From positions 98,305 to 162,304 of IMG/VR virus record IMGVR_UViG_3300033146_002768: a stretch of DNA of 64,000 nucleotides. One strand, given 5' to 3'. Positions 29,811 through 60,194 of the stretch are shown here, piece after piece. The position numbers and the translations under genes are program-made. Source of the stretch: a virus. Numbering within the stretch: the first letter of the stretch is position 1; the number at the start of each line of letters is the position of its first letter. The notes below the pieces were generated by a model. It was given only the letters and a program-made list of their open reading frames with translations. It had not been told where the DNA came from and did no database searches.

Positions 29811-30243
29811 GTCAATAAACCAAACAACTTAACTCAGTTCATTTCTCATTATACTTATTTATCAAGATGTCGGATATAGTTTTAAAAAAAGAAAGGACTA
29901 GACACTAACTCACTATCAGTATATCATCTATTCGTATTAATCACATACAAGAAAACAACTAATCTAATAAGAAACATACTAATAACAATAAGATTTAAAC
30001 TAAACATAATCAATATTCAATCCAATTATATTAAAAGAGTTATAATTATTATTTAAAGAGTATTATTTAAAGAGTATTATTAATAAGAGTATAAGGTATT
30101 AAGGATATAATAACATAAGGTCATTATGATTTCAAGGGGGATGTTTATTGTAATAGTATGTATGAAGTATAGTTAGTGGGTTATAAGCAGGTTGTAAGTA
30201 AGTTGAATATAGATTATGTTTTCATTTGTATAGTAACTGAGCT

Positions 30244-30337
30244 GAGTATATGTATAGATGAGGGAAGTATATGTATAGATGATGGAAGTATATGTATAGA
30301 TGATGGAAGTATATGTATAGATGATGGAAGTAAGAGG
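30244..30337 (+). repeat. 21-bp tandem repeat, four copies
   Basis: Unit AAGTATATGTATAGATGATGG. Copies two to four are identical (30265-30327), the first (30244-30264) differs at two or three bases, and a truncated unit with a spaced partial copy follows. The period is a multiple of three but I see no convincing gene here. Confidence 0.9.
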
Positions 30338-30455
30338 AAGTATATGTCTTGAGTTCGTTTCTCAACGTCCATTTTATAGTTCTCACGGTCTAGTCCGAGT
30401 CCCAAATAAAATTCCGGACGCCATCCAACCAACAATCCATATTAATCTAAAACAT

Positions 30456-32527: not shown

Positions 32528-32785
32528 TTATATACTCATCTTCCTCTGAAGTTTAAACTTTTTCTTTTTAGCAGTAATTAATGCTCTTTGAGCTTTTGAT
32601 GAATTACCTTTAGTCTTTATATGATTGACTATTTTATTTATATGATTATCAAGCTTACTTAGTTTATGATTATTATCAGGTGGTAAACGAGAAGCTTTTA
32701 TATCTTGTCTAATATTTGCTTGTTTAGAAGATACAGGCGCTCTCTTTTTTTCATTTAAATAATTTAAATATTTATCAACTCTCAT
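32528..32785 (-). CDS. Small basic protein with T4-like capsid-targeting N-terminus (85 aa)
   Basis: N-terminus MRVDKYLNYLNE ends in LNE at residues 10-12, matching the LxE cleavage site of T4 prohead protease on packaged proteins. Four neighbours start in the same way (YLxxLxE). The remainder is strongly basic (AKKKKFKLQRK) as expected of a DNA-associated internal head protein. Packaging and injection are inferred from the pattern, not shown. Confidence 0.65.
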   Translation of the reverse strand: MRVDKYLNYLNEKKRAPVSSKQANIRQDIKASRLPPDNNHKLSKLDNHINKIVNHIKTKGNSSKAQRALITAKKKKFKLQRKMSI

Positions 32786-32993
32786 AAGATATGTCCTTTT
32801 TATTAATACTTTGTAACAATGATCTATAACACCATCTAGGTAAATAGTAAAATACTCCGCTAATAAGCATCCAGATTAATGTAAACCCTAAGCATATAAA
32901 TTCAAGTATAGCCATCATAAATGATAATAGACCAATCATAAAAGCTATACATAAAGGTATTATTATTATTAGTAATGATAGTAATTCACTTAA
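32775..32993 (-). CDS. Membrane protein with unclear, possibly non-AUG start (about 72 aa)
   Basis: The frame runs from just after AAGGAG (33000-33005 region) with no ATG, GTG or TTG until the ATG at 32939. The codon six bases after the site is TTA (32993). From there the product is hydrophobic (LLSLLIIIIPLCIAFMIGLL, then LGFTLIWMLISGVFYYL). The stop overlaps the next gene by 11 nt. A start at 32939 gives 54 aa but no ribosome binding site. Coordinates use the longer form. Confidence 0.4.
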   Translation of the reverse strand, partial: LSELLSLLIIIIPLCIAFMIGLLSFMMAILEFICLGFTLIWMLISGVFYYLPRWCYRSLLQSINKKDISYES

Positions 32994-33006
32994 TGTATTC
33001 TCCTTT

Positions 33007-33020
33007 TTATATTATGTTAC
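33007..33020 (-). promoter_or_regulatory. Late-type promoter box (variant)
   Basis: Minus strand reads GTAACATAATATAA followed directly by AAAGGAG. It differs from the GAACA form by one base. Confidence 0.45.
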
Positions 33021-33045
33021 TTTTAATATAAATAGTTTCTATAAT

Positions 33046-33246
33046 CTATCTTTGTACTTTAGTTTGTTTTTGTATCATTGATGCATTCATTTTCTTTTTC
33101 TTCATAGCATCCATTTGTCTTTTTTTCATACGAGCTTTATTGATATCAGCTGCAAGACCTCGAGCAGTATTAATAGCAGATAGTCCTGTTTGTACAGCAG
33201 CTATCCCTATTTCATTTAAGCTTTTAATTATTTGTTTTTTGTCCAT
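33046..33246 (-). CDS. Small basic protein with capsid-targeting-like N-terminus (66 aa)
   Basis: MDKKQIIKSLNE ends in LNE at residues 10-12. The body has an Ala/Ile-rich helix (AAVQTGLSAINTARGLAADI) and a very basic tail (KARMKKRQMDAMKKKKMN). N-terminus nearly matches those at 33259 and 37044. ATG 9 nt after AGGAG. Confidence 0.65.
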   Translation of the reverse strand: MDKKQIIKSLNEIGIAAVQTGLSAINTARGLAADINKARMKKRQMDAMKKKKMNASMIQKQTKVQR

Positions 33247-33258
33247 AACATAGTACTC

Positions 33259-33498
33259 CTAAATTTTATTTTTATGCTTAGTTTGTTTTGTAGAAGCTGC
33301 TGCTATTTTTAAATTTCTTTTCTTTTCTCGTCTAGCAGCCATTTTTGCTTTTTGTCTTTTTATATCTTCTGGTCCCATTCCCATAGTTGCTGCTCCTATA
33401 GAACCGATAAATTGAACTACTTTATTATTTCTAAATTTCTCTAATCTTTCGCCTTCCATAATTTTATTTATATCTTTAATAATTTTTAATTTATCCAT
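33259..33498 (-). CDS. Small basic protein with capsid-targeting-like N-terminus (79 aa)
   Basis: MDKLKIIKDINKIME: the MDxxxII start is shared with two neighbours and an IxE lies at residues 13-15. The body is Lys/Arg/Ala-rich (QKAKMAARREKKRNLKIAAA) with a short Gly/Met-rich segment (GSIGAATMGMGP). It is the first gene after a late-type promoter. Confidence 0.6.
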   Translation of the reverse strand: MDKLKIIKDINKIMEGERLEKFRNNKVVQFIGSIGAATMGMGPEDIKRQKAKMAARREKKRNLKIAAASTKQTKHKNKI

Positions 33499-33519
33499 AA
33501 CATTATCCTTATTTATATT

Positions 33520-33543
33520 TATTAATATTTATTAATATGTTCC
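33520..33543 (-). promoter_or_regulatory. Late-type promoter box
   Basis: Minus strand reads GGAACATATTAATAAATATTAATA, 22-45 nt before the ATG at 33498. Divergent from the early-type block at 33621. Confidence 0.6.
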
Positions 33544-33620
33544 AAAAAAATTTATATATAATTAGATGCATATAACTGCTCGATCGGGCTTAAAAAATCG
33601 TATCCATTATAAGTATATTT

Positions 33621-33655
33621 ACTATATATATTATTTGGTAATAGTAAAGGATTAT
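33621..33655 (+). promoter_or_regulatory. Early-type promoter block
   Basis: ACTATATATATTA, 12 nt including TAATAG, then AAAGGATTAT, about 28 nt before the ATG at 33684. Confidence 0.75.
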
Positions 33656-33683
33656 TAATTTAATTTAATTGGAGATATAAATT

Positions 33684-33980
33684 ATGACAGAGAAATGTAC
33701 TAATCAAAATTGTGAATCTTTTTCTTTAGGTTGTGATAGAGAAATTGTTACTACCTGTGAAAATTGTGGAGAGTGTATGAACATTCCATACACTAAACCT
33801 TGGACAGTACCTAATGATCATCTTGAAAAGAGTAAAGAATGCGATGGTCAGATTTGTCCTTCATGTTATCATATCAATTATTGTGATGAAGAGATTATGA
33901 CTGATGGTCGTAATGATGTTAAATTTAATGAAAGGTCATTTAACGACGAGTGGGAAGAAAACGGAATTCTCGATAAGTAA
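33684..33980 (+). CDS. Cys-rich zinc-binding-like protein (98 aa)
   Basis: About ten cysteines in pairs (KCTNQNCES, CENCGECMN, ICPSCYHINYC) suggest one or two zinc ribbons or knuckles. The C-terminus is acidic. First gene of an early-type plus operon, ATG about 9 nt after GGAG. A regulator acting through nucleic-acid or protein contact is possible; no family recognised. Confidence 0.65.
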   Translation: MTEKCTNQNCESFSLGCDREIVTTCENCGECMNIPYTKPWTVPNDHLEKSKECDGQICPSCYHINYCDEEIMTDGRNDVKFNERSFNDEWEENGILDK

Positions 33981-33990
33981 AGGAGGATTA

Positions 33991-34164
33991 ATGGACATTA
34001 TTTTGATATATCTTTTTGGTTGTGTCATGGCTGCTTATAATGGATGGCAAATGGCTAATTGTCTTAATGAAAAAAGGTACTGGTTGGCAACTATGTTTGG
34101 TACACTTTTAGTTTTGATAGTGTATTTGAATAAAGATATTCCAACAAAATGTGGATGGTGGTAA
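33991..34164 (+). CDS. Two-helix membrane protein (57 aa)
   Basis: ATG at 33991 follows AAAGGAGG; upstream in-frame ATGs lie inside the preceding gene and lack a site. Hydrophobic segments at about residues 2-19 (IILIYLFGCVMAAYNGW) and 31-46 (LATMFGTLLVLIVYL). Confidence 0.6.
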   Translation: MDIILIYLFGCVMAAYNGWQMANCLNEKRYWLATMFGTLLVLIVYLNKDIPTKCGWW

Positions 34165-34182
34165 TAATTAAAAGGAGATAAT

Positions 34183-34596
34183 ATGAAAGAAGAAACTAAA
34201 AAAATAAGTCGCAACATTGCAATTGATGTATTTGTTGCTATGGTAGGCATTTCAATTATAGGGATTTTCTTTGTTGAAGAAAGATCCTGGATTGCAAAAT
34301 GGTGGATAAGTGTTGTTGGTATTGGATTTACTGGGTTTGTTATTTGGTTTCTGATTGGAACTTTTCTGAGTTGGAGATCTATCGGAGTTGTTGTGTTGGG
34401 TAAAGGGTATGGAATAGCAGCTTCAATTTTAGGTCTCGGAGGTGGTGTTGGAGGAGCAGCAATTTTTGGTTGTAGTTTAAATATGATTCTTAATCCAGAT
34501 CAATATATCTGGAATGTTGGAGGTATTGTTGCAACTATTGTTATTGCTATATTTGTTAGCAATGGAACAAAAGCTGCTATTGATAAACATCAATAG
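34183..34596 (+). CDS. Polytopic membrane protein (137 aa)
   Basis: Three or four hydrophobic segments: IDVFVAMVGISIIGIFF, WISVVGIGFTGFVIWFLIG, a Gly-rich stretch (AASILGLGGGVGGAAIFG) and WNVGGIVATIVIAIFV. No family recognised. ATG follows AAAGGAG. Last gene of the operon before the terminator. Confidence 0.65.
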   Translation: MKEETKKISRNIAIDVFVAMVGISIIGIFFVEERSWIAKWWISVVGIGFTGFVIWFLIGTFLSWRSIGVVVLGKGYGIAASILGLGGGVGGAAIFGCSLNMILNPDQYIWNVGGIVATIVIAIFVSNGTKAAIDKHQ

Positions 34597-34608
34597 AAAA
34601 AAGTTATT

Positions 34609-34637
34609 AAAGAGTGTTTGTAAGGCACTCTTTTTTT
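34609..34637. terminator. Rho-independent terminator
   Basis: AAAGAGTG / CACTCTTT stem with a 9-nt loop followed by a T-run. Ends the plus operon. Confidence 0.85.
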
Positions 34638-34650
34638 GTTTATATTTTCT

Positions 34651-34788
34651 TTAAACCATTATTTCACATTCAGTTTCATCTATATATTTTTTTATAAATA
34701 AACCTAATCCAAATATAATAGCAGGAATAGATCCTGGTATTAATAATATTATAAGTAATGCTTTCATTAATGTTAATAGTATAATCAT
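34651..34788 (-). CDS. Small membrane protein (45 aa)
   Basis: ATG after GAAAGGAAAATAAA. Almost entirely one hydrophobic region (ALLIILLIPGSIPAIIFGLG) followed by a charged tail. It continues the minus operon after the gene at 34807. Confidence 0.5.
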   Translation of the reverse strand: MIILLTLMKALLIILLIPGSIPAIIFGLGLFIKKYIDETECEIMV

Positions 34789-34806
34789 TTTATTTTCCTT
34801 TCTAAT

Positions 34807-35178
34807 TTATTTTATAAAATCATGTGGTGGCATTTTATCTAACTTGACATATTTAAGAGTTGATTTTTTCATATCTATTGCTTTCATTAGTCTATGATAT
34901 CCATCTAATAAAATATCTTTAGGACCAACTATAACAGGATATTTAAGTTGAGCATTTCTTATTCTTATTATATGATTCTTTAAATCAAAGTATGTATTTA
35001 AAGTCCATTCTATTTTTGTATGAAGATCTATTTTATTTATAGATAGAGTTTTTACTGGAAACCCTTTAGTTGCATCAATTAAAGTTTGAACATACCATAC
35101 TTTATTACCTTCTACATAAGTATTTTTTATTTCTAATTTTTCATTTATATATAATTTATTTAAATTTAGTTTATTCAT
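34807..35178 (-). CDS. ParB/sulfiredoxin-fold-like protein (123 aa)
   Basis: The C-terminal third has PVIVGPKDILLDGYHRLMKA, which resembles the xDGxHRxxA motif of ParB/Srx-type domains; these bind DNA or hydrolyse nucleotides. The rest of the domain is diverged and short. The first 13 residues (MNKLNLNKLYINE) end in INE and might also be a capsid-targeting sequence, but less clearly than in neighbours. ATG overlaps the preceding stop as ATGA. Confidence 0.5.
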   Translation of the reverse strand: MNKLNLNKLYINEKLEIKNTYVEGNKVWYVQTLIDATKGFPVKTLSINKIDLHTKIEWTLNTYFDLKNHIIRIRNAQLKYPVIVGPKDILLDGYHRLMKAIDMKKSTLKYVKLDKMPPHDFIK

Positions 35179-35345
35179 TTCAATAACTCCCTTATTATCC
35201 TATAACAAACTAGTCCTACAGTATATGTTCTAATTATAATATAATCCACAAAATTAAATATTATACGCATACACTTTACTATCACTGTTAAGCTGAATAT
35301 TATAATCATGACTCCTATGAGATAACTAACTAAGAAGTCAAACAT
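35175..35345 (-). CDS. Small membrane protein (56 aa)
   Basis: Hydrophobic in the N-terminal half (FLVSYLIGVMIIIFSLTVIV). Starts 4 bases after the stop of the gene upstream and ends in an ATGA overlap with the gene at 35178, both typical of coupled genes. Ribosome binding site weak (AAGG). Confidence 0.5.
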   Translation of the reverse strand: MFDFLVSYLIGVMIIIFSLTVIVKCMRIIFNFVDYIIIRTYTVGLVCYRIIRELLK

Positions 35346-35349
35346 TATA

Positions 35350-35613
35350 TTACCTTGGTCTATTATTCATAGCTCTTCTCATTTGATCACCTTTAATTTT
35401 TTGATTATCCATAGCTTGTGATCTTTGTTCTGGAGTGCTGCTATTTGATGGTTTATTATTTCTAGAATCTTTAGATGCTGCTTTAATTCCAACATATCCA
35501 ACTAATAATGTTAAAGGAATTAATACACCTGCTGAGCTTTTCCAAACTTTTTTGACTTTATCCCAAATAGCGCCCTCATTTAATTTCATTAAATAATTAT
35601 CTAATATACTCAT
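35350..35613 (-). CDS. Small protein with T4-like capsid-targeting N-terminus (87 aa)
   Basis: MSILDNYLMKLNE ends in LNE at residues 11-13, followed by GAIWDKVKKVWKSSAG and a hydrophobic segment (VLIPLTLLVGYVGIKAA), then a polar, basic tail. The WDxVKKVW stretch recurs in the frameshifted gene at 36528-37044, so the two are related. Late-type promoter at 35633-35648. Confidence 0.65.
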   Translation of the reverse strand: MSILDNYLMKLNEGAIWDKVKKVWKSSAGVLIPLTLLVGYVGIKAASKDSRNNKPSNSSTPEQRSQAMDNQKIKGDQMRRAMNNRPR

Positions 35614-35632
35614 AATTTTATTCCTTGTTTTT

Positions 35633-35648
35633 ATTTTATATTTTGTTC
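35633..35648 (-). promoter_or_regulatory. Late-type promoter box
   Basis: Minus strand reads GAACAAAATATAAAAT, 20 nt before the ATG at 35613. Confidence 0.65.
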
Positions 35649-35683
35649 TATATTTTTGGTTCCATTATAAAATTATGCCAACG

Positions 35684-35728
35684 GCAAAAAAGCAGAGTGA
35701 TATATAATATTCACTCTGCTTTTTTTTG
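35684..35728. terminator. Bidirectional rho-independent terminator
   Basis: AAAAAAGCAGAGTGA / TCACTCTGCTTTTTT stem with a 10-nt AT loop. It ends the minus gene at 35731; the T-run on either strand allows both directions. Confidence 0.85.
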
Positions 35729-35730
35729 TA

Positions 35731-36177
35731 TTAAAATTCTGATTCTGGTGCTTGTTCATCACCACTACTAGTATTAGTATCTGCTTGTTCCTCATTAGGT
35801 AATTCTGATTCTGGTGCTTGTTCATCACCACTACTAGTATTAGTATCTGCTTGTTCCTCATTAGGTAATTCAGATATTGTTCTAGCTATACCTCTTGGCG
35901 GAATTGTTCCGCTTAGTTGAGGAGATCTTAATCCAAGAGCTTGTCCTATTTCTGCACTACATTCTTCATCGCAGTCACAAGATTTTTCTTGATCCCAGTC
36001 GACGTCAAATTGTTCTTCCATTTGAGCGAGCATTGCTTTTTCTTTTTCATCACCATTAATATAATGATCAACTAAGAAATCAATAATATTTATATCAAGA
36101 AGTCTAATTCTTTCTTTTAGTCTCATCCATTTTCCTTTTTCATACCAGTCATTTACTAATTCTTTACTTAATTCCAT
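35731..36177 (-). CDS. Acidic protein with 22-residue C-terminal duplication (148 aa)
   Basis: ATG at 36177 lies 5 nt after AAGGAG; a GTG six bases earlier overlaps that site. The N-terminal half is helical and charged, with a short CDCDEEC cluster near residue 70. The C-terminus carries two exact 22-residue repeats (ELPNEEQADTNTSSGDEQ as core), acidic and low in complexity, likely disordered. No family recognised. Confidence 0.6.
   Translation of the reverse strand: MELSKELVNDWYEKGKWMRLKERIRLLDINIIDFLVDHYINGDEKEKAMLAQMEEQFDVDWDQEKSCDCDEECSAEIGQALGLRSPQLSGTIPPRGIARTISELPNEEQADTNTSSGDEQAPESELPNEEQADTNTSSGDEQAPESEF
35735..35866. repeat. Exact 66-bp tandem duplication
   Basis: Two copies, 35735-35800 and 35801-35866, identical at every base. 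Being in frame and undiverged, it is recent, unlike the old repeats in the giant genes. Confidence 0.95.
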
Positions 36178-36189
36178 GTTCACTCCTTT

Positions 36190-36372
36190 TCACTTTATTG
36201 TTTTTCTTTTTGAATAACGGTCATTTGTATTTAAATTATCTGACATACCACCGATAATATTTTGATATAATAATGTTAGAATTTTCCATATGATGTTAGT
36301 TAATGCAGCGACAACGGTTAGAAATGCCATAATAATAAATATTAAAATAAGATATATTATTAAAGAATCCAT
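36190..36372 (-). CDS. Small membrane protein (60 aa)
   Basis: N-terminal hydrophobic helix (LIIYLILIFIIMAFLTVVAA) then a second weaker segment and a basic tail (RYSKRKTIK). ATG after AAGGAGG. Function unknown. Confidence 0.55.
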   Translation of the reverse strand: MDSLIIYLILIFIIMAFLTVVAALTNIIWKILTLLYQNIIGGMSDNLNTNDRYSKRKTIK

Positions 36373-36374
36373 TA

Positions 36375-36485
36375 CTAACCTCCTTGATATTTAATAAAAG
36401 TTACAAAAAAATTACCAAACCAAATACCACATGCTGTTGATATACTAAGCATAAAAATAAAATATATTATACCTCTCCAGTCCAT
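36375..36485 (-). CDS. Very small membrane protein (36 aa)
   Basis: ATG 5 nt after AAGGA. Hydrophobic throughout (IIYFIFMLSISTACGIWFG). Its last codons contain the Shine-Dalgarno site of the gene at 36372. Confidence 0.5.
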   Translation of the reverse strand: MDWRGIIYFIFMLSISTACGIWFGNFFVTFIKYQGG

Positions 36486-36494
36486 AACTATCCT

Positions 36495-36508
36495 TTTTTA
36501 TTATGTTC
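36495..36508 (-). promoter_or_regulatory. Late-type promoter box
   Basis: Minus strand reads GAACATAATAAAAA and runs straight into AAGGA, leaving a very short leader before the ATG at 36485. Confidence 0.4.
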
Positions 36509-36527
36509 TTTTTGTATATTTTATTTT

Positions 36528-37044
36528 CTAAAAGTCATCAAAGTCTTTACTTTTTCTAATAATAGAACCAGTCTTTTGTTTTTGAGGTTCTGATTTAGTA
36601 GAAGTCTTACCACCACTAGAATTTGAACTTATTTTGGTTCCGCCCATTTTAAGACACTTAACAAATTTACCATGTCTAAATGAAGCTTGTCCACCGTTAC
36701 CACATTTAGCTCTTACTATATCACCTTTAGCTGACATTTCTTCTCTACGTTTTTTAGACTTAGCTTTAAATCTTTTCATCATTGGACTATCTTCTTTCTT
36801 TTGTTTAGGTGCAACTTTTTTATCTTTATTTCTTAATGCTAATCCAGCAGCAAGACCAGCCCCACCAGCTATTATTTTACCTTTATGATCCCCAAACTTT
36901 CTTAACAGCATCCCAAGTTTTACCTTCAATGATTTCTTCTTTCTTTTTCTTTTTCTTAACTCCATGTAATCCTTCTATACCAGGAAGTCCAGCAGCAGAA
37001 GAAACCATTTCATTTATTTTATTAATTATTTGAGAACGATCCAT
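36528..37044 (-). pseudogene. Capsid-targeted basic protein gene with a +1 frameshift
   Basis: Frame one starts at ATG 37044, 7 nt after AGGAG, and gives MDRSQIINKINE (capsid-targeting-like, INE at 10-12), a Lys-rich run, then TWDAVKKVW before TAA at 36883-36885. The next frame continues with KGKIIAGGAGLAAGLALRNK and a basic Gly/Ser/Cys-containing body to 36528. Joining at the GGGG run at 36890-36893 by dropping one base gives a smooth protein of about 171 residues that resembles the gene at 35350 (WDKVKKVW followed by a hydrophobic stretch). It may be a sequencing error, a real mutation or programmed frameshifting. An internal ATG at 36965 would give a product lacking the targeting sequence. 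Confidence 0.6.
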
Positions 37045-37061
37045 AATATATCTCCTAATAA

Positions 37062-37079
37062 GTATTTATAATATGTTCC
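37062..37079 (-). promoter_or_regulatory. Late-type promoter box
   Basis: Minus strand reads GGAACATATTATAAATAC, with an exact TATAAATA, 18 nt before the ATG at 37044. Confidence 0.7.
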
Positions 37080-37095
37080 ATTTATCATCAAAGGA

Positions 37096-37131
37096 ACTAT
37101 ATATATTACAATACATAAGAGAAAGGATTAT
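37096..37131 (+). promoter_or_regulatory. Early-type promoter block
   Basis: ACTATATATATTA, 13 nt including CATAAG, then AAAGGATTAT, 25 nt before the ATG at 37157. Divergent from the late box at 37062-37079. Confidence 0.75.
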
Positions 37132-37156
37132 TAATTTTAATTTAATGGAGTAAACT

Positions 37157-37333
37157 ATGGATAAGGAGATTTGTGAACAATGTAAAAAGAAGGCAGATGA
37201 TAGAGGTCTTTTTACTTATGCTTTTATAAGCGAAGATCTTATTAAACCGATTGAAACTAAAGAAGTATGTTTTGATTGTCGAAAAAATCTAACAGAGTTT
37301 GATGAAATGAAAAAACAATATCAAAACAATTAA
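37157..37333 (+). CDS. Small zinc-binding-like protein (58 aa)
   Basis: Two CxxC pairs, ICEQCKKK near residue 6 and VCFDCRKN near residue 42, typical of a small zinc ribbon. ATG 7 nt after GGAG. First gene after an early-type promoter. Confidence 0.65.
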   Translation: MDKEICEQCKKKADDRGLFTYAFISEDLIKPIETKEVCFDCRKNLTEFDEMKKQYQNN

Positions 37334-37343
37334 GGAGAATAAT

Positions 37344-37694
37344 ATGAAAGAACAACCATCATCAGCCCCATTTTTCGCTACGTTAGCATTTACATTTATG
37401 GTTGGATTAATTGCTGTATCATGGACTTCAACTAAACAAATAAGTCAATTAAAATATGAATCATTAATTGATAATAAAACAATCAATTCATTAACTAACG
37501 AGACTCATGAATTGAAGTCAAGAAGTCATTATTTTGAATCTCTTTTAAAAGAATCTAAAGGATCAAATGATACAATGATTGCTGATTTGATGAATTATAA
37601 ATCTCAAATTGAAAAGATGAAAGCTGAAATTGAAGAATATGAATCTGTTCAATTACAAAGTAATGAAGTTTTAAAGAAATTAATGTTGAATTAA
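37344..37694 (+). CDS. Membrane-anchored coiled-coil protein (116 aa)
   Basis: One N-terminal helix (APFFATLAFTFMVGLIAVSW) then about 85 residues of Glu/Lys/Ser-rich coiled coil. Signal-anchor topology, so the coil probably lies in the periplasm. Could be a spanin-like or envelope-acting early protein; no family recognised. Confidence 0.6.
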   Translation: MKEQPSSAPFFATLAFTFMVGLIAVSWTSTKQISQLKYESLIDNKTINSLTNETHELKSRSHYFESLLKESKGSNDTMIADLMNYKSQIEKMKAEIEEYESVQLQSNEVLKKLMLN

Positions 37695-37713
37695 AATCTA
37701 AATAATTCAATAA

Positions 37714-37742
37714 TTAAAGAGCAGTCAGAGTGCTCTTTTTTG
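37714..37742. terminator. Bidirectional rho-independent terminator
   Basis: AAAGAGCA / TGCTCTTT stem, 7-nt loop, followed by T-run. Lies between convergent genes and overlaps the end of the minus gene at 37725. Confidence 0.85.
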
Positions 37743-38168
37743 TATCTTTTTAATAATTTTAGTAGTAGAAATCCCTTTAACAATCGGAATTCTTATAGTT
37801 TTATCTTCTATTTTTTTAGGAGACCAGTCTGACCCTTTAACTAAAAAATCGGGTTTTATTTTTTCTATTAATTTTTTTGGTGTTTTTTCATTAAAAATTA
37901 CAACATGATCAACATATTTTAATGATGATAAAATTTCAGCTCTATGATCTTGATTAATAATAGGTCGTTTTTGACCTTTTATTTCTTTAATAGACGAGTC
38001 TGAGTTTAATCCAACAATTAAAAAATCGCCTAATTTTGATGCTTCTCGTAAACATTTTATATGACCTACATGTAAAATATCAAAACAACCATTCGTAAAA
38101 ACTACTCTTCTATGAAATTGTCGATAAACTTCCATGACATATTCTATTTCATCTTGAGTATTTATCAT
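37725..38168 (-). CDS. RfaE/HldE C-terminal-type adenylyltransferase (147 aa)
   Basis: Cytidylyltransferase-fold enzyme: TNGCFDILHVGHI carries the HxGH signature, followed by LIVGLNSDSSIKEIKGQKRP, DHRAEILSSLKYVD and a late KPDFLVKGSDW. These match the adenylyltransferase domain of HldE (formerly RfaE), which turns heptose-1-phosphate into ADP-heptose for LPS. The kinase half is missing; stand-alone forms (HldC or RfaE2) exist. In a phage it may supply a nucleotide-activated sugar for glycosylation or alter host LPS (inference). The start overlaps the upstream stop as ATGA. Confidence 0.85.
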   Translation of the reverse strand: MINTQDEIEYVMEVYRQFHRRVVFTNGCFDILHVGHIKCLREASKLGDFLIVGLNSDSSIKEIKGQKRPIINQDHRAEILSSLKYVDHVVIFNEKTPKKLIEKIKPDFLVKGSDWSPKKIEDKTIRIPIVKGISTTKIIKKIQKRAL

Positions 38169-38341
38169 TTCATTCCTTTATAATCACCTAAAATTCCATT
38201 AAAATATTTTTTAATTTTAGGAACTATTGGGTATCCGAAGTGAGCTGACCAATGTTCAATATTAATATAAATAATATATCCTGCCCACCAAACTATACCG
38301 ATATTAAAAATTCTTTCACCTACATCAATCCAATAATTCAT
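38165..38341 (-). CDS. Small aromatic-rich protein (58 aa)
   Basis: ATG follows AAAGGAG. Hydrophobic centre with many Trp/Tyr/Ile (IFNIGIVWWAGYIIYINIEH), probably membrane-associated. It overlaps the adenylyltransferase start, so the two are coupled. Confidence 0.55.
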   Translation of the reverse strand: MNYWIDVGERIFNIGIVWWAGYIIYINIEHWSAHFGYPIVPKIKKYFNGILGDYKGMK

Positions 38342-38351
38342 AAATTTCTCC

Positions 38352-38366
38352 TTTTATAATTTGTTC
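38352..38366 (-). promoter_or_regulatory. Late-type promoter box
   Basis: Minus strand reads GAACAAATTATAAAAGGAG; box and Shine-Dalgarno site are fused, 10-25 nt before the ATG at 38341. Confidence 0.55.
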
Positions 38367-38473
38367 TTTATATACAAAATAGTTTCTTATAATGCCTCAA
38401 CGAGCTTAAATAGCGTTTAATGAGGTTTAATAAAGTTTCGTGATAAGGAGGTTACCTTTCAATAAACATTAAA

Positions 38474-38516
38474 AATACAAAAAAATAATGTTATATTTAA
38501 TATCTTATATTATTTT
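38474..38516 (-). terminator. Possible AT-only terminator
   Basis: AAAAAATAAT / ATTATTTTTT stem around an AT-rich loop, overlapping the end of the gene at 38510. It lacks GC pairs, so it is weak. Confidence 0.4.
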
Positions 38517-38755
38517 TTTCGTTGTTTTATTAATATGTCTTGATGGTTAACTCCTTCTCTACCATTTAAAAAAACCTTCTTAACTGATCTTGTTATTACA
38601 TTTCCTTCATTACGAATTTGTTGAACGATTATTAGATTGTCTTCTTCCGCTAATGAAATTATTCTTGCTAATTTTTCAGCGGATTGATTTTTTACAGTAA
38701 GTGTTTTAATTTTTCCATCAATAGTACTAGTATCAATAACATGAATATAAATCAT
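38510..38755 (-). CDS. Unrecognised protein (81 aa)
   Basis: Alternating beta/helix pattern (YIHVIDTSTIDGKIKTLTVK, then KLARIISLAEEDNLIIV) with a basic C-terminus. ATG after AAAAGGAG. A late-type box lies about 105 nt upstream at 38859. No family recognised. Confidence 0.55.
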   Translation of the reverse strand: MIYIHVIDTSTIDGKIKTLTVKNQSAEKLARIISLAEEDNLIIVQQIRNEGNVITRSVKKVFLNGREGVNHQDILIKQRKK

Positions 38756-38858
38756 ATTAGCTCCTTTTCAATTCAGCAAAAATAATCATATAACACAACA
38801 CAATTGTTAAATAATATATATAGTTTTTTAATCTAAAATGGATAGAATTTTTTGGTCT

Positions 38859-38874
38859 AATTTATAATATGTTC
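38859..38874 (-). promoter_or_regulatory. Late-type promoter box
   Basis: Minus strand reads GAACATATTATAAATT. The leader to the ATG at 38755 is unusually long (about 105 nt) and contains a 10-codon ORF. Confidence 0.5.
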
Positions 38875-38895
38875 GGATACATTATGGTTTAAATT

Positions 38896-38930
38896 ACTAT
38901 ATATATTATTGTGTAATAGTAAAGGATTAT
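38896..38930 (+). promoter_or_regulatory. Early-type promoter block
   Basis: ACTATATATATTA, 12 nt including TAATAG, then AAAGGATTAT, about 25 nt before the ATG at 38955. Confidence 0.75.
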
Positions 38931-38954
38931 CACTTTAATTTAATGGAGGTTATT

Positions 38955-39110
38955 ATGGAAGATATGATAGTGAAGTTTATTCAAGATTATCAAATGTTGA
39001 TAGTTGGTGTAATTGCCATTGTGGCTGTAGGATTAGGATTCTATCTTTATAAAAAATCTGGCTTGTATAGCAGAAAAGTCCCCCAAGACTTATATAAAGA
39101 TATTAGGTAA
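38955..39110 (+). CDS. Small membrane protein (51 aa)
   Basis: ATG 6 nt after GGAGG. One hydrophobic helix (MLIVGVIAIVAVGLGFYLYK) with a basic C-terminal tail. First gene of an early-type plus operon. Confidence 0.6.
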   Translation: MEDMIVKFIQDYQMLIVGVIAIVAVGLGFYLYKKSGLYSRKVPQDLYKDIR

Positions 39111-39148
39111 TCTAAATGTTTTTTATAATTTAAAAAAGGAGAATAGTT

Positions 39149-40012
39149 ATGATAGATACAAGTCAAATGAGACTTGACCCTACAGATCCTGATTCTTATA
39201 GAGCTTTATATGCAGCAGTAGATAAGAATTTTGCTGAGGCAATAACAACCGTTAATGAAACTGCTATAGAACATTATAACAGATTTGTTAAGTTCGAACA
39301 ATCAGATGATGTAAAGCTTCATATTATTCATCCTCGACATGTTGATGATAGTCAACCAAAATTTAAAAAACGGAAAAATGTTTTTTATCAAGGAAAGTTG
39401 ATTATTGCTCTTGCTGTAGATGATCATATGTTAGAAGAAATGGAACGACAAAACAATGAACCTTTAGAAGAATGGTTGGAAGTTATCAGAATGGTTATTG
39501 AGGATAATATGTCATTTATTAAAAGAAAACGAGTTGCTGAATCTGATAAAGAACATCGGGTCAGAGTTAAACGGTTTCTAGGGCTTGAGTATGAAGTTAT
39601 GGAAATGATTAATAATAAATCTCGACAAAATGCCCTTGATGAAGGAATTGAATATTATAATTCAGAAGCTTCTAAGGAAGCTGCTAAGGAAGGTGTAAGA
39701 CAACATTTCAAAATAGAGGAAGAAAATAAAGAAAAAGCTTCCATACAATTAGATGTGGATAAACAAACTTATTCATATTTTATATGGGGAATAATAAGTG
39801 TTGTTGGTTTCTCATGTCTTATTTTGAATAGTTTAGGGTGGTTTCCCGTTTTTATACCATTGACGATATTTTCAACTTGTGTTATTCTTTGTTCAATTAT
39901 TGCTTTTTCAAAATCAGAAAAATCACATTTTGAGAAAATAAATAATAACAAAGCATATGAAGTTGGATTTAAAAATACCACAATGAAAATTGTTAAAGGA
40001 ATTTTTAATTAA
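39149..40012 (+). CDS. Unrecognised protein with C-terminal membrane hairpin (287 aa)
   Basis: Soluble, charged N-terminal ~205 residues, with a beta-like segment (FYQGKLIIALAVDD) and helical stretches (LDEGIEYYNSEASKEAAKEG). Two hydrophobic helices follow at about residues 212-226 and 235-252 (PVFIPLTIFSTCVILCSIIA). Both ends are therefore likely on the same side of the inner membrane. ATG after AAAAGGAG. No family recognised. Confidence 0.65.
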   Translation: MIDTSQMRLDPTDPDSYRALYAAVDKNFAEAITTVNETAIEHYNRFVKFEQSDDVKLHIIHPRHVDDSQPKFKKRKNVFYQGKLIIALAVDDHMLEEMERQNNEPLEEWLEVIRMVIEDNMSFIKRKRVAESDKEHRVRVKRFLGLEYEVMEMINNKSRQNALDEGIEYYNSEASKEAAKEGVRQHFKIEEENKEKASIQLDVDKQTYSYFIWGIISVVGFSCLILNSLGWFPVFIPLTIFSTCVILCSIIAFSKSEKSHFEKINNNKAYEVGFKNTTMKIVKGIFN

Positions 40013-40022
40013 GGAGATTGAT

Positions 40023-40175
40023 ATGAAACATGTTATAGTATTGGGTATGATTGGGATGTCTGCATTCTTTTTCTTTGGTGATGCTGAAGCGATAACAAGT
40101 ATGATGGCAACAGCATGTTGGACTGGGGGTTTAGCTGTAATGGTTATTGGATTGTTTAAAGCAATTCTTAACTAA
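40023..40175 (+). CDS. Small membrane protein (50 aa)
   Basis: I take ATG at 40023 because GGAG lies upstream (GGAGATTGAT) and earlier in-frame codons overlap the preceding gene. Signal-like N-terminus (VIVLGMIGMSAFFFFGDAEA) and a second hydrophobic segment (GLAVMVIGLFKAIL). Confidence 0.55.
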   Translation: MKHVIVLGMIGMSAFFFFGDAEAITSMMATACWTGGLAVMVIGLFKAILN

Positions 40176-40183
40176 CAAGAATT

Positions 40184-40224
40184 AAAAAGGGGGTTGCAAT
40201 ATTATTATGCAACCCCTTTTTTTT
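40184..40224. terminator. Bidirectional rho-independent terminator
   Basis: AAAAAGGGGTTGCA / TGCAACCCCTTTTT stem with one bulged G and an AT-rich loop, T-run of eight. It separates convergent genes. Confidence 0.9.
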
Positions 40225-40231
40225 GTATAAA

Positions 40232-40474
40232 TTATCTTCTAGATGCTGTTCTGGTTCTTCCAGCATATTTTTTATGTACTTTTTTTCTATAATCTTTACA
40301 TCTATCACAATATTTTTTCATCATTTTATATAATGGATCTCCACGCTTTCTAGCCATAGAAGTAGATAGTTGACCTTGAGCTCTTTTAATTTTTGTCTTT
40401 CGACTAATAGTAGCACGGGATCTTTGTTTTCGAGCTTCTTGTAACATATTTAAGTAATCATTTATATAACTCAT
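40232..40474 (-). CDS. Small basic protein with T4-like capsid-targeting N-terminus (80 aa)
   Basis: MSYINDYLNMLQE ends in LQE at residues 11-13. The rest is extremely basic (KTKIKRAQGQLSTSMARKRG, KKVHKKYAGRTRTASRR) with a CDRC pair, like a DNA-packing internal head protein. TATAAATA lies at 40493-40500, just upstream. Confidence 0.65.
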   Translation of the reverse strand: MSYINDYLNMLQEARKQRSRATISRKTKIKRAQGQLSTSMARKRGDPLYKMMKKYCDRCKDYRKKVHKKYAGRTRTASRR

Positions 40475-40485
40475 TTTTATATTCC

Positions 40486-40878
40486 TTATACGTATTTATA
40501 CATATTACAATTTAATGTTTTGTTTTGAAATTTTGCTGATCTATAACATAACGGAGTAAATTTAGTTAACCCAATAACTCCGCTGAATTTACAATTATCG
40601 CAACTTATTTTAACTGATAACTCTCCATCTATATGAGATATTATTTGTATGTTATCAGATATAAATTCATCATCACCAAATATTAAAAGAGATGCAGATG
40701 AAGTAGATATAATAATATTAGCCTCTAAATGTTCAACATAACCATATTCAATAGTACCAAAAGATTCTGAGTTAATATAAACATTTGCTGTCAAACTGGT
40801 TATTTCATGTATTTTTTCTAATGTAGAATTTATAGAAATAGTTGCATGATTATAACTAGTTAAACTTATATCAGCCAT
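40486..40878 (-). CDS. Small member of the giant-repeat family (130 aa)
   Basis: Contains about two units of the giant-protein repeat (GYVEHLEANIIISTSSAS then LLIFGDDEFISDNIQIIS) at 23-residue spacing. The C-terminus has cysteines (SCDNCKFSG, PLCYRS) and the short run GLTKFTPLCY, loosely like the end of giant B (GRTPCALKF). It may be a cap, adaptor or remnant of the repeat family. ATG after AGAGG. Confidence 0.6.
   Translation of the reverse strand: MADISLTSYNHATISINSTLEKIHEITSLTANVYINSESFGTIEYGYVEHLEANIIISTSSASLLIFGDDEFISDNIQIISHIDGELSVKISCDNCKFSGVIGLTKFTPLCYRSAKFQNKTLNCNMYKYV
40493..40500 (-). promoter_or_regulatory. T4-like late box TATAAATA
   Basis: Exact TATAAATA on the minus strand, about 19 nt before the ATG at 40474 and overlapping the end of the preceding gene. 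No GAACA element precedes it. Confidence 0.45.
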
Positions 40879-40881
40879 TTA

Positions 40882-41568
40882 TTAAACCTCTTTAATTTTA
40901 AAGTCTTTTAGTTTATCATCATATTCTACATATGTATAATTATGAATCATGTCGCCACAATTTATATATGTACAATTGTCATGAGATGATATCTTAGGAA
41001 AATGAGTATGTCCCATTACAAGATAATTACATTTATGATTGTATGCATCAATAGCTTCTATTTCAACATCTTTAAGTAATTGAGCATAATAATCTTTATT
41101 TCTTTTACTAGATAAAGATTTACCAAATAACTTTCTAAAGAATGCTTTTAAATTAATACCAAAAATTCTTTCAGTAATCCAGTGAGGTACAAATAATATT
41201 TTACCTAACCAAGAATATTTATTTACTAAATTATCAAATTGACACCCATGTATAATAAACACATCATCTAATAATAACTCACTGACAACTTTTGAATATA
41301 AGAATGTTAATCTTAAATCTACGGCATCAGGATCATGATTACCTTCTATATAATAAACATCTTTTTGAGTAGATACATCATTTATAACATTTACTATATC
41401 AGTATTTTTTCTAATTATATCATAAAAACAATCTTCCCAAATATCAAAAATATCACCATTCAAAACAATTCTATCATATTCTGAGCATTTAAGTAATTTA
41501 ATAACTTCATCTTTTTTATTAAATAAAGGACTACCTAAATGCAAATCTGAAAGAATTAATGTTTTCAT
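40882..41568 (-). CDS. LpxH-like calcineurin-type phosphoesterase (228 aa)
   Basis: All metal-binding motifs are present in order: LILSDLHLGSP, VLNGDIFDIWED, IEGNHDPD, FIIHGCQFD and VMGHTHFPK. The family includes UDP-2,3-diacylglucosamine hydrolase (LpxH) and other metallophosphoesterases; length and the insert FVPHWITERIFG fit LpxH-like proteins. The substrate is not proven; lipid A precursor, nucleotides or glycan phosphates are possible. Starts in a TAATG overlap with the upstream gene. Confidence 0.8.
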   Translation of the reverse strand: MKTLILSDLHLGSPLFNKKDEVIKLLKCSEYDRIVLNGDIFDIWEDCFYDIIRKNTDIVNVINDVSTQKDVYYIEGNHDPDAVDLRLTFLYSKVVSELLLDDVFIIHGCQFDNLVNKYSWLGKILFVPHWITERIFGINLKAFFRKLFGKSLSSKRNKDYYAQLLKDVEIEAIDAYNHKCNYLVMGHTHFPKISSHDNCTYINCGDMIHNYTYVEYDDKLKDFKIKEV

Positions 41569-41837
41569 TAGAACTCCTTAAATGGTTTATTTTTTTTACT
41601 TAAATGAATATGCCAATGAGTATCTGAATCGGAAATTGTATCGTCGATAAAAAGTCCTTTATGCTTTTCTTTAATAATTCTTAAAACTTCTTTTTTTTCA
41701 TCAGTTGATATTTTATTTCTATGTTCTTTTAAAATAATCATTGGGACAAAATGTTTATTACATTTAACTCCAAAAAATCTTTCTGTTTCCCATAGTTTCC
41801 TTTTGACTTTACACATCTTACATTTTATTCGTGCCAT
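41568..41837 (-). CDS. Small zinc-ribbon protein (89 aa)
   Basis: CKMCKVKRKLWETERFFGVKC gives three Cys near the N-terminus, and HWHIHL near the C-terminus may add metal ligands. I recall similar short phage proteins but no function. It overlaps the phosphoesterase start by one codon. Confidence 0.6.
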   Translation of the reverse strand: MARIKCKMCKVKRKLWETERFFGVKCNKHFVPMIILKEHRNKISTDEKKEVLRIIKEKHKGLFIDDTISDSDTHWHIHLSKKNKPFKEF

Positions 41838-41842
41838 TTCAC

Positions 41843-42187
41843 CTATAACCTTGATAGTTTAGTTTTCAGTTTATTGATCTCTTTAGTTAATTTAACAACT
41901 TCTTTATTAATCTTACTTATACATTTTGGTATATTTGTTGACCATTTTTGACAAGTAGTTTTGAATTTTTTAACTTCGATTATTGTTTTTCGTAATGCAT
42001 TAATCTTATATTTTATGAAACATTTTTTTCTATCAACACCTAATTTTCCTAAACAGTGTTTAGCAATTTTTTTATGTTCCATATATTTTTTATAAATTTT
42101 ACTTGCTAAAATAATAACAGGAAGAACGACAAATTCATTTAACTCCTCAGTATTTTCTTGTAAGTAATCTAAATATCTATTTATCAT
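41843..42187 (-). CDS. Basic protein with T4-like capsid-targeting N-terminus (114 aa)
   Basis: MINRYLDYLQE ends in LQE at residues 9-11. It is followed by a hydrophobic helix (FVVLPVIILASKIYKKY), a Lys/Cys-rich part and a C-terminal coiled coil (KINKEVVKLTKEINKLKTKL). Weak ribosome binding site (AAGAG). Confidence 0.6.
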   Translation of the reverse strand: MINRYLDYLQENTEELNEFVVLPVIILASKIYKKYMEHKKIAKHCLGKLGVDRKKCFIKYKINALRKTIIEVKKFKTTCQKWSTNIPKCISKINKEVVKLTKEINKLKTKLSRL

Positions 42188-43918: not shown

Positions 43919-44488
43919 TTATTTTCCTTTTTGATAATTAATTGTAAACAAAGATTTATCTAAAGTTAAATAATCATCAGGCATTATATAGTTTTCTTTT
44001 TTTCTATTCATTTTAGGTTTATCAAAAAAGTAATCAATCACCTCTGTGCATGAAAATCTAGTTGAGTCACTAAAATCAAAACTAAAATCATATTCAACGC
44101 CTTTAACATATAAATCTCTAGCCTTCTTTATTGCAGCCTTTGATATTTGTTCTTCATTACAATGGATGATTGCCACGTCATCACAGCGACAAAAGGTTAA
44201 GATATCTTGTTTATCTATTCCATCTCCTAACATATGAATAACTTTATTATTTCCCATATAGATTGCGGCATGCGTATAGTAACCAGGAATCATTAGACCA
44301 CTTAGATAATGATTATATCGTCTTAATAAAATATCTCCGGGTTGAATAATATTTATTATATCTCTTACATCTTCGCCTTTCATTTCATAAGCAGTATGCC
44401 CAAACATAATAAATGAAGGGTATTTAAATACTTGAATATTTCCGAACCATTTAATAGCTGCTTTTTTAATTTTATAAAATACACTCAT
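43919..44488 (-). CDS. YiiX/NlpC-P60-type permuted papain-like peptidase (189 aa)
   Basis: Typical order of the permuted NlpC/P60 group: PGDILLRR near residue 50, YTHAAIYMGNNKVIHM with the catalytic His, an Asp/Glu-rich middle, and FSCTEVIDYF with the catalytic Cys. These enzymes cut amide or ester bonds in peptidoglycan peptides, lipoproteins or lipids. In a tail operon it may act on the cell wall during entry or release (inference). ATG after AAGGAG. Confidence 0.78.
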   Translation of the reverse strand: MSVFYKIKKAAIKWFGNIQVFKYPSFIMFGHTAYEMKGEDVRDIINIIQPGDILLRRYNHYLSGLMIPGYYTHAAIYMGNNKVIHMLGDGIDKQDILTFCRCDDVAIIHCNEEQISKAAIKKARDLYVKGVEYDFSFDFSDSTRFSCTEVIDYFFDKPKMNRKKENYIMPDDYLTLDKSLFTINYQKGK

Positions 44489-51246: not shown

Positions 51247-51741
51247 TTATGATTGATCGTAAATGTTTAGTATATATGGCATAGAAACACTTGCATAACT
51301 ATGTCTTTTATCTTTAAGTTTTAATTTTCTAACATTTTTATTTAAACGATATGCAGCATGTACCCAACCACCAGGAAAATACTCAGCAATCAATTCTCGA
51401 TAATCTAAGTTAGTATGAATCCATTTAATAATATCAACTAACCTAATGTTTGAACTAACCGGTTCAAAATCGAGAGCTTCACCTCTAGTATGATTTGATT
51501 TTGGCGAACTACCAATAGCTTGACATAATTCTACTGATCTAAACCCTGAAGTAATTCTTATCATACCAAATTTTTCTCTTACTGGTTGAATAATATTTCC
51601 AGCGACTCTTTCAATGGATTGCCATTGTTGTTCATTAGGTATATTTCTGATACCTAATCTCATTGCAGTATCTGATTTTACAAATTCTCTATATTTAAAA
51701 TTAGGTGCCATTGGAAGTTTTTTATTTAAATCGCGTAACAT
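51247..51741 (-). CDS. M15-family peptidase, probable endolysin (164 aa)
   Basis: Zinc ligands of the M15 fold are present: SNHTRGEALDFE (His84, Asp91) and GGWVHAAY (His128), preceded by the conserved RITSGFRSVEL. Family members cut D-Ala-D-Ala or L-Ala-D-Glu bonds in peptidoglycan. No signal peptide or wall-binding domain, so release by a holin or similar protein is expected. ATG after AGGAGATATATT. Confidence 0.88.
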   Translation of the reverse strand: MLRDLNKKLPMAPNFKYREFVKSDTAMRLGIRNIPNEQQWQSIERVAGNIIQPVREKFGMIRITSGFRSVELCQAIGSSPKSNHTRGEALDFEPVSSNIRLVDIIKWIHTNLDYRELIAEYFPGGWVHAAYRLNKNVRKLKLKDKRHSYASVSMPYILNIYDQS

Positions 51742-51961: not shown

Positions 51962-52975
51962 TTATTTTTTTAACATTTCTTTGGTTACACTAAGATCTTT
52001 AATCTCCCAGGCATCCCAACAGAAATCTTTAATATAGTTATAAGGTAAATATCCATACCCATCTTGTCCCCAATTAGTTCCCCAAGAATTTTTAAATTTA
52101 AACATTCTTGTTTCTGGGTTCCATCCTACTAAACAAATAGCATGTCCACCATAACATTGATTAGGATCTTTTGGATATGGCACTACCCCATTATTTGTTG
52201 TATAAAATATTTCTAAATAACAACCAACACCAACAGGTAAAGGTCCATTATTTTTTAAAGAATTTATTATGTTTTCCGGAGTTTCAAGTCTTAAATATTC
52301 ACCACCTAATGCCCATTTGGAAACTAGAGTTGCCCAACGTTTTGGTTCACCAACATATGATTCATTGTACGGCCAAGCATTTTCAACTGGAACTCCAACT
52401 GTATTTAAAATTTTCATTGCAAATCTAATTGAGGTGCCTTCTTCATTTGGCCAGTAATCAATATCTTTACATTTGTAATACATCCATTGTTCAGATAGAT
52501 CATAGTTTTTCTTTTTTCTTTTATATTTTTTACCTTTAGAAATTTCTTCTAAATGCTCTTGTTGTTCTTGCCATTCTTTCATAGCTACAACAGCAAACCC
52601 AACACAAGACCCTAACGAACCTTGATTCTTTACTGGACTCATTTGTAAGGTATAATCAGTTGCATTAACATTAACAACTTCTCTTAAAATAGTTGAATTT
52701 AACTTTGGTGATTTATGGTCTCTGTCATCTAAATTATCTTTTACATAATTTAATATAAACCCTTCTGGAATTGATAGAATCTCTTTTTGAAAATCATCAG
52801 CTTGTTTCGCTGGATGTTTGGATATAATAGAATAATCTTTAATACCTAAAGCATCTAATTGTAAAGTTATATATTTTACTTGATTTTCAAAACATATAAA
52901 TTCAGTAGGGGTTCTTACTAATTTTTGATTAATAACTACTAAAAAACCAGCATCATTTATTTTTATTTGTATCAT
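51962..52975 (-). CDS. Papain-like (C1A) cysteine protease (337 aa)
   Basis: All four papain active-site elements are present: Gln118 and Cys124 in VKNQGSLGSCVGFA, His278 in YGGHAICLVGW, and Asn296 in FKNSWGTNWGQDGYGYL. The N-terminal ~60 residues match the small neighbour at 51753. No signal peptide is evident. It could process virion proteins, act on host proteins or attack cell-wall peptides during entry; the tail operon favours a virion or lysis role. Confidence 0.85.
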   Translation of the reverse strand: MIQIKINDAGFLVVINQKLVRTPTEFICFENQVKYITLQLDALGIKDYSIISKHPAKQADDFQKEILSIPEGFILNYVKDNLDDRDHKSPKLNSTILREVVNVNATDYTLQMSPVKNQGSLGSCVGFAVVAMKEWQEQQEHLEEISKGKKYKRKKKNYDLSEQWMYYKCKDIDYWPNEEGTSIRFAMKILNTVGVPVENAWPYNESYVGEPKRWATLVSKWALGGEYLRLETPENIINSLKNNGPLPVGVGCYLEIFYTTNNGVVPYPKDPNQCYGGHAICLVGWNPETRMFKFKNSWGTNWGQDGYGYLPYNYIKDFCWDAWEIKDLSVTKEMLKK

Positions 52976-59461: not shown

Positions 59462-59471
59462 AATATCTTCC

Positions 59472-60191: not shown

Positions 60192-60194
60192 TAT

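What the first reader, a model, noticed from the sequence alone, without database searches (positions are those of the whole stretch)
32528..42187. A set of small proteins with T4-like capsid-targeting N-termini
At least seven late-strand genes start with a 10-15 residue leader ending in LxE or IxE (LNE, LQE, INE or IME): 32528, 33046, 33259, 35350, 36528-37044, 40232, 41843, and less clearly 34807. In T4, prohead protease gp21 cuts after such motifs in proteins packed into the head and injected. The bodies here are basic and otherwise unrelated to each other, as expected of a mixed set of packaged effectors. No annotation by similarity would group them.
Basis: partly seen in the sequence, partly recalled or inferred. 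Interest (0 to 1): 0.8.

Follow-up and report, generated by a model that had tools for sequence, protein, structure and literature searches.

The report
T4-style packaging tags on phage cargo
An uncultured giant phage, like its relatives, puts the same short removable address tag on many unrelated proteins; this is very probably how it loads them into its head to be shot into the host with the DNA, as phage T4 does with a few proteins.

Summary
The leaders are real and are very probably T4-type capsid-targeting propeptides. The phage (207 kb record) encodes a T4 gp21-like S77 prohead protease with all three catalytic residues aligned, and a gp23-like capsid protein. The capsid and scaffold proteins carry L-x-E sites where such a protease should cut. 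"LxE near the N-terminus" alone is barely above chance. The extended leader Y-L-x-x-L-[N/Q]-E is not: taken from the window and tested on 12 relatives, it starts 14 proteins and never occurs internally (expected 0.07 or less); phiKZ has none. Its residues fall at the spacing of the targeting and processing residues of T4 IPIII (YQEFIAE). About 20 unrelated bodies carry it across 15 genomes, including a DsrC domain, an M48 peptidase, P-loop NTPases and a rubredoxin-like domain. In one relative a near-identical RBS-plus-leader DNA stretch precedes two unrelated genes. One (40232) is a duplicate of a small capsid-operon protein, so "effector" is unproven for the window's own set. Packaging, cleavage and injection remain inferred.

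The parts
32528..32785 (-). Leader gene: MRVDKYLNYLNE | basic 73-aa body (pI 11.6); leader codons 32750-32785
   Evidence: (no decoy as good in 28,484). Syntenic orthologue in L178 has a shorter leader MDKSLLNE
33046..33246 (-). Plausible leader gene: MDKKQIIKSLNE | basic 54-aa body
   Evidence: p=0.025; leader DNA similar to those of 33259 and 36883
33259..33498 (-). Doubtful leader gene: MDKLKIIKDINKIME | basic 64-aa body; shares upstream DNA with the leader gene at C1:192969
   Evidence: p=0.065; upstream/leader DNA 75% identical to 33046 over 63 nt; promoter-RBS 88% identical over 50 nt to C1:192969
35350..35613 (-). Leader gene: MSILDNYLMKLNE | 74-aa basic body with a hydrophobic stretch; leader codons 35575-35613
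   Evidence: p=2.5e-4; pI 10.8
36883..37044 (-). Plausible leader gene, interrupted: MDRSQIINKINE | MVSSAAG...KKVWGS stop
   Evidence: p=0.007; L178 orthologue MNKSEIKTKLNKVFE|MTSAAGG ends its leader with E just before the same body
36528..36965 (-). Continuation of the 36883 body in the +1 frame (basic, Gly/Ala-rich hydrophobic stretch); the ORF's own ATG is probably not the true start
   Evidence: frame break at ..GTT TGG GGA TCA TAA; indel, decay or recoding not resolved
37063..37078 (-). Late-promoter-like element GAACATATTATAAATA just upstream of 36883-37044; a 2-mismatch copy lies about 53 bp upstream of the major capsid gene
   Evidence: (20 matches in window against 8.6 expected, none of 100 shuffles reach it)
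40232..40474 (-). Leader gene: MSYINDYLNMLQE | 67-aa very basic body (net +23); paralogue of a capsid-operon gene at C1:201261-201491; leader codons 40436-40474
   Evidence: model shows leader helix 2-14, linker 15-24, helical hairpin
41843..42187 (-). Leader gene: MINRYLDYLQE | 103-aa body with four conserved Cys; absent from the syntenic segment of L178
34807..35178 (-). Rejected member: MNKLNLNKLYINE...; conserved phage family phrog_17560, no leader motif

Best explanation
The leaders are capsid-targeting propeptides of the T4 type. Late in infection the leader, a short helix of 10-15 residues with consensus Y-L-x-x-L-x-E, binds the assembling prohead core (inferred). It so carries the attached protein inside the prohead (inferred). 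The phage's S77 protease then cuts after the final Glu (protease shown by sequence; cutting inferred). The freed basic body stays with the packaged DNA and enters the next host with it (inferred). The leader is a movable module placed on many bodies: head-core proteins such as 40232, and in relatives enzymes that probably act on the host at the start of infection.
For: (1) S77 protease in the genome, E 1.5e-12 over cut-off, and in 22 of 23 related records; His, Ser and Asp align with T4 gp21. (2) T4-like capsid protein and portal beside it. (3) All aligned clade capsid proteins keep L-[LM]-E|NSM within one residue of the mature N-terminus annotated for phiR1-37 (VMLQE|Ser87). (4) The acidic protein near the portal carries YMELLKE|S in this genome and YxxLLKE|A/S in most relatives. 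(5) Motif taken from the window: 14 N-terminal and 0 internal in 12 relatives, P about 1e-27; phiKZ none in 173 genes. (6) An unbiased comparison of N-terminal with internal LxE sites finds Y at E-6 (p 5e-8), L at E-5, Y at E-3 (p 5e-7) and A after the cut. T4 IPIII is MKTYQEFIAE|A, whose residues 4 and 7 drive targeting and 8 and 10 processing (PMC9026906). (7) About 20 unrelated bodies share the leader. (8) In G022 a 64-nt stretch, 98% identical and spanning RBS and leader, precedes two unrelated bodies. (9) Cargo is gained and lost: 33046, 33259, 35350 and 41843 are absent from the syntenic part of a 73%-identical relative. (10) Basic bodies, late-type promoters.
Against: There is no virion proteomics or N-terminal mapping, and the phage is uncultured. 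Some family members have altered leaders (LQKE, LQDD, FFQE, LNKVFE), so the cleavage rule is looser than LxE or some are not cut. 33046 and 33259 lack the Tyr. Several bodies (35350, 36528, the M48 peptidase of G022) have hydrophobic stretches, so a membrane role is possible. The T4 yardstick itself scores only moderately on the clade's profile (p 0.015).
Confidence: 0.8

Rival explanations
1. The leader is a scaffold- or core-binding peptide that only docks proteins during head assembly; the proteins are assembly factors that are degraded or leave, as T4 gp67 and gp68 fragments mostly do, and are not injected effectors.
For: 40232 belongs to a family encoded between scaffold and portal genes in this genome and relatives; C1:197113 lies between protease and capsid genes; both are small and very basic.
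Against: In relatives the same leader sits on enzyme-like bodies (DsrC domain, M48, P-loop, rubredoxin-like) encoded far from the head genes. Cargo turnover between close relatives does not fit essential assembly factors.
Confidence: 0.15
2. The leader is an amphipathic membrane or other localisation helix unrelated to packaging, and the LxE ending is incidental.
For: Several bodies have hydrophobic stretches (35350, 36528, 41843 N-terminal part, G022 M48); the leader is predicted helical in 40232.
Against: The final Glu is kept while the rest varies, the spacing fits T4 IPIII, the scaffold and capsid proteins carry the same kind of site, and a matching protease is present.
Confidence: 0.04
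3. Chance: with many small genes, some N-termini will end in LxE or IxE.
For: Plain LxE/IxE is only about 1.25 times enriched at N-termini; 34807 and perhaps 33259 are explained this way.
Against: The extended motif is about 100-fold enriched, validated on held-out genomes and absent from phiKZ.
Confidence: 0.01

Closest known systems
[quoted passage not shown]
   Same: 10-19 residue N-terminal propeptide ending in L/I-x-E, small basic bodies that differ from one another, gp21-type protease (PMC9026906); Y at E-6, bulky hydrophobic or aromatic residue often at E-3, L/I at E-2, often A after the cut
   Different: Leader consensus YLxxLxE instead of YQEFIAE; capsid proteins only about 23-26% identical to known phages; about 20 cargo families across the clade, some up to 413 aa and enzyme-like; no sequence similarity of the tested bodies to catalogued phage proteins
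T4 Alt (packaged ADP-ribosyltransferase)
   Same: Enzyme-like cargo tagged by a short propeptide that ends in a gp21 site
   Different: No Alt homologue was found; an ART-like fold in G001:92524 and G021:41471 is only my guess from a Leu-Tyr-His motif and got no database support
phiKZ/SPN3US ejection proteins
   Same: Large phages that package many proteins processed by a prohead protease
   Different: AxE-type cleavage in SPN3US and mostly long propeptides (PMC10052503); no YLxxLxE leaders in phiKZ
P1 DarB capsid-targeting N-terminus
   Same: N-terminal signal sends an anti-restriction protein into the head (PMC9024508)
   Different: A single large cargo; the 30-residue signal is not described as this motif

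Membership tests
T4-type capsid-targeted internal proteins | A gp21-family (S77) prohead protease is encoded by the same phage | tested here: met
T4-type capsid-targeted internal proteins | N-terminal propeptide of 10-19 residues ending in L/I-x-E | tested here: met
   Met for 32528, 33046, 35350, 36883, 40232, 41843; 33259 only by IME; 34807 fails the profile
T4-type capsid-targeted internal proteins | Leader residues at the positions needed for targeting in IPIII (Tyr at E-6, aromatic at E-3) | tested here: met
   Both enriched in an unbiased test; the individual genes 33046, 33259 and 36883 do not have the Tyr
T4-type capsid-targeted internal proteins | One leader shared by unrelated small basic bodies | tested here: met
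T4-type capsid-targeted internal proteins | Proteins present inside virions with the leader removed | not testable with these tools
   No virion proteomics for this uncultured phage
T4-type capsid-targeted internal proteins | Injection into the host and action there (as IPI* or Alt) | not testable with these tools
   No experiment available; bodies in the window have no recognised function
S77 prohead protease | Pfam PF03420 match over curated cut-off and conserved His/Ser/Asp | tested here: met

The most novel reading that the evidence does not exclude
This uncultured clade of large T4-related phages runs a general protein-delivery system. A transferable RBS-plus-leader cassette is moved by recombination onto almost any gene, including metabolic and redox-type proteins such as a DsrC domain without its cysteines, a rubredoxin-like domain, an M48 peptidase and P-loop enzymes. 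Each virion would then inject a changing cocktail of enzymes at the moment of infection.
Probability: 0.4. Interest if true: 0.8.

Novelty: new variant of a known kind. Interest (0 to 1): 0.64.

Why it matters
If right, a seven-residue motif reads out the injected cargo of a whole clade of uncultured giant phages directly from sequence. It would turn dozens of 'hypothetical proteins' into candidate first-minute effectors and anti-defence proteins. It also suggests that auxiliary metabolic proteins can be delivered ready-made in the virion, and it offers a new packaging tag for protein delivery.

Tried and rejected
Plain LxE/IxE counting: too weak to support the claim. Near DNA matches in cultured phages: none; tblastn of 40232 and 41843 against 50,697 phage records: none. 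Pfam and PHROG on the window bodies: nothing trustworthy. A close-relative scan with 41843 in viral contigs found none, although tblastn against fetched relatives found its family. Fold search of the 41843 and 40232 models: no hit below E 0.7. ART-like guess for G001:92524 and G021:41471: no support by Pfam, PHROG or, for G021:41471, PDB sequence, and no homologues beyond the same contigs. T4 IPI was not located in the T4 stretch fetched, so the yardstick is IPII/IPIII.

Full report
What is there. The window is C1:98305-162304 of a 207,111-bp virus record. The genome has a T4-gp23-like capsid protein (C1:194789-196240), a portal (C1:199365-201260) and an S77 prohead protease (C1:197435-198091) in one late-strand block. 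The protease aligns with T4 gp21 at LSELDHP, GFSMRG and FDAVSQPS, where T4 has LNHP, VSSRG and VDAVWGPS, so the catalytic His, Ser and Asp are kept (the naming of the triad is from my own knowledge). Twenty-three related records were found by the capsid protein, and 22 have the same protease.

The observation. All eight N-termini exist. I tested them in four ways. First, plain LxE/IxE: weak, about 1.25 times background. Second, an unbiased comparison of N-terminal with internal LxE/IxE contexts in 13 genomes: Tyr at E-6 (2.2 times, p 5e-8), Leu at E-5 (p 5e-5), Tyr at E-3 (2.3 times, p 5e-7), Gln at E-1, Ala at +1. Third, a hold-out: the motif YL..L[NQ]E taken from the window's four clear cases was counted in 12 relatives. 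It occurs in 14 N-termini and nowhere in 458,713 internal positions. Fourth, a negative control: phiKZ, a large phage outside this group, has none among 173 called genes in 197 kb. A profile trained without this genome ranks 40232, 41843, 32528, the scaffold-like protein C1:202573 and 35350 at the top. 36883 and 33046 are borderline but related to each other and to 33259 in leader DNA. 34807 is rejected. The gene calls are from a simple script that requires a Shine-Dalgarno-like site, so counts are approximate; 41843 has a weak site and was added by hand.

Why capsid targeting. In T4, IP propeptides of 10-19 residues target proteins to the prohead core and are cut by gp21 after L/I-x-E; in IPIII, residues 4 and 7 matter for targeting and 8 and 10 for processing (PMC9026906). 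T4 IPII and IPIII both read MKTYQEFIAE|A, that is Tyr at E-6, Phe at E-3, Ile at E-2. The present leaders match at E-6 and E-2, and often at E-3. The capsid proteins of the clade all keep L-[LM]-E|NSM within one residue of where phiR1-37 is annotated to have its mature N-terminus, after VMLQE. The acidic protein near the portal begins MSKRVNYMELLKE|S here and YxxLLKE|A/S in most relatives, as expected of a scaffold, though its scaffold role is inferred from charge and position. In the 40232 model the leader is a separate helix (2-14) followed by a lower-confidence linker, which would expose the cut site. A recurring GAACATATTATAAATA element, found upstream of 36883 and, with two mismatches, of the capsid gene, fits late expression.

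Modularity. Tight leaders occur on 25 sequence clusters, including the scaffold and two borderline window genes; leaving out those and two doubtful hits, about 20 remain. In G022 two neighbouring genes with unrelated bodies share a 64-nt stretch at 98% identity that covers RBS and leader, direct evidence of leader duplication. Some bodies occur elsewhere without the leader, for example M48 in G004 and the G001:128848 family in G022. In L178, a relative about 73% identical in the alignable DNA, 40232 keeps YLEYIQE|A and 32528 has MDKSLLNE|V, while 33046, 33259, 35350 and 41843 are missing from the corresponding segment. The 36883 orthologue there reads MNKSEIKTKLNKVFE|MTSAAGG against MDRSQIINKINE|MVSSAAG in the window: the leader differs in length, yet a Glu stands just before the same body in both.

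What the cargo may be. 40232 belongs to a conserved small basic family encoded between scaffold-like and portal genes in this genome (MKLFKQFFQE|VKKP..., C1:201261-201491) and others, so it looks like a duplicated head-core protein. 41843 is one of many copies of a four-cysteine domain in the clade. The other window bodies have no relatives outside near kin in the sets searched. In relatives the leader is attached to a DsrC domain (8.8e-25) in which both C-terminal cysteines are replaced, an M48 peptidase (7e-23), a desulfoferrodoxin N-terminal domain (3e-11), P-loop NTPases and DUF5661. Phage DsrC proteins without both cysteines have been reported (PMC8190135), but I saw no mention there of a packaging leader.

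Conclusion. Shown: the leader family, its modularity, the protease, and matching sites in the capsid protein and scaffold. Inferred: targeting, cutting, presence in virions, injection and host action. I did not find earlier work describing this leader in the papers searched, which cover open-licence papers only.

Noticed in passing
L140:8339-9112 (G005 C1:86335-87108): Leader MIDLYLHYLNE, about 140 aa of unknown sequence, then a DsrC domain with both redox cysteines of the C-terminal arm replaced (SLNKLAGLPNHKGI): possible packaged DsrC mimic.
   Followed up: partly
L105:8023-9297 (G022): M48 metallopeptidase with hydrophobic segments carrying the leader MLDDYLNYIQE; a relative in G004 (C1:144442) lacks the leader.
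   Followed up: partly
L106:5022-5333 and 5369-5971 (G022): Two adjacent genes with unrelated bodies share RBS plus leader DNA (64 nt, 98%): fresh leader duplication.
   Followed up: yes
window 36528-37044: Frame break inside a leader gene (TGG GGA TCA TAA, continues in +1 frame); assembly indel, decay or recoding not resolved. The L178 orthologue is also short.
   Followed up: partly
window 53390-61642 and C1:166920-173935: A dense cluster of radical-SAM-like genes (CxxxCxxC motifs) on the late strand, unusual for a phage; seen by eye only.
   Followed up: no
window 43919-44488, 51247-51741, 51962-52975: Peptidase C92 (YiiX-like), M15 peptidase and papain-like C1 protease among late genes.
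   Followed up: no
window 37725-38168: RfaE-type cytidylyltransferase-like protein (FTNGCFDILHVGH); the similar G017:186347 starts MDLLTFIKE|A, possibly leader-tagged.
   Followed up: no
L181, L182, L183: Capsid homologues (68-80%) sit in contigs binned as Thermoplasmatales, Woesearchaeota and Heimdallarchaeota MAGs. Probably misbinned phage contigs, but all three being archaeal deserves a check of the host.
   Followed up: no
window 30176-30352 and 35731-36183: Short in-frame tandem repeats (GSICIDD; SELPNEEQADTNTSSGDEQAPE).
   Followed up: no
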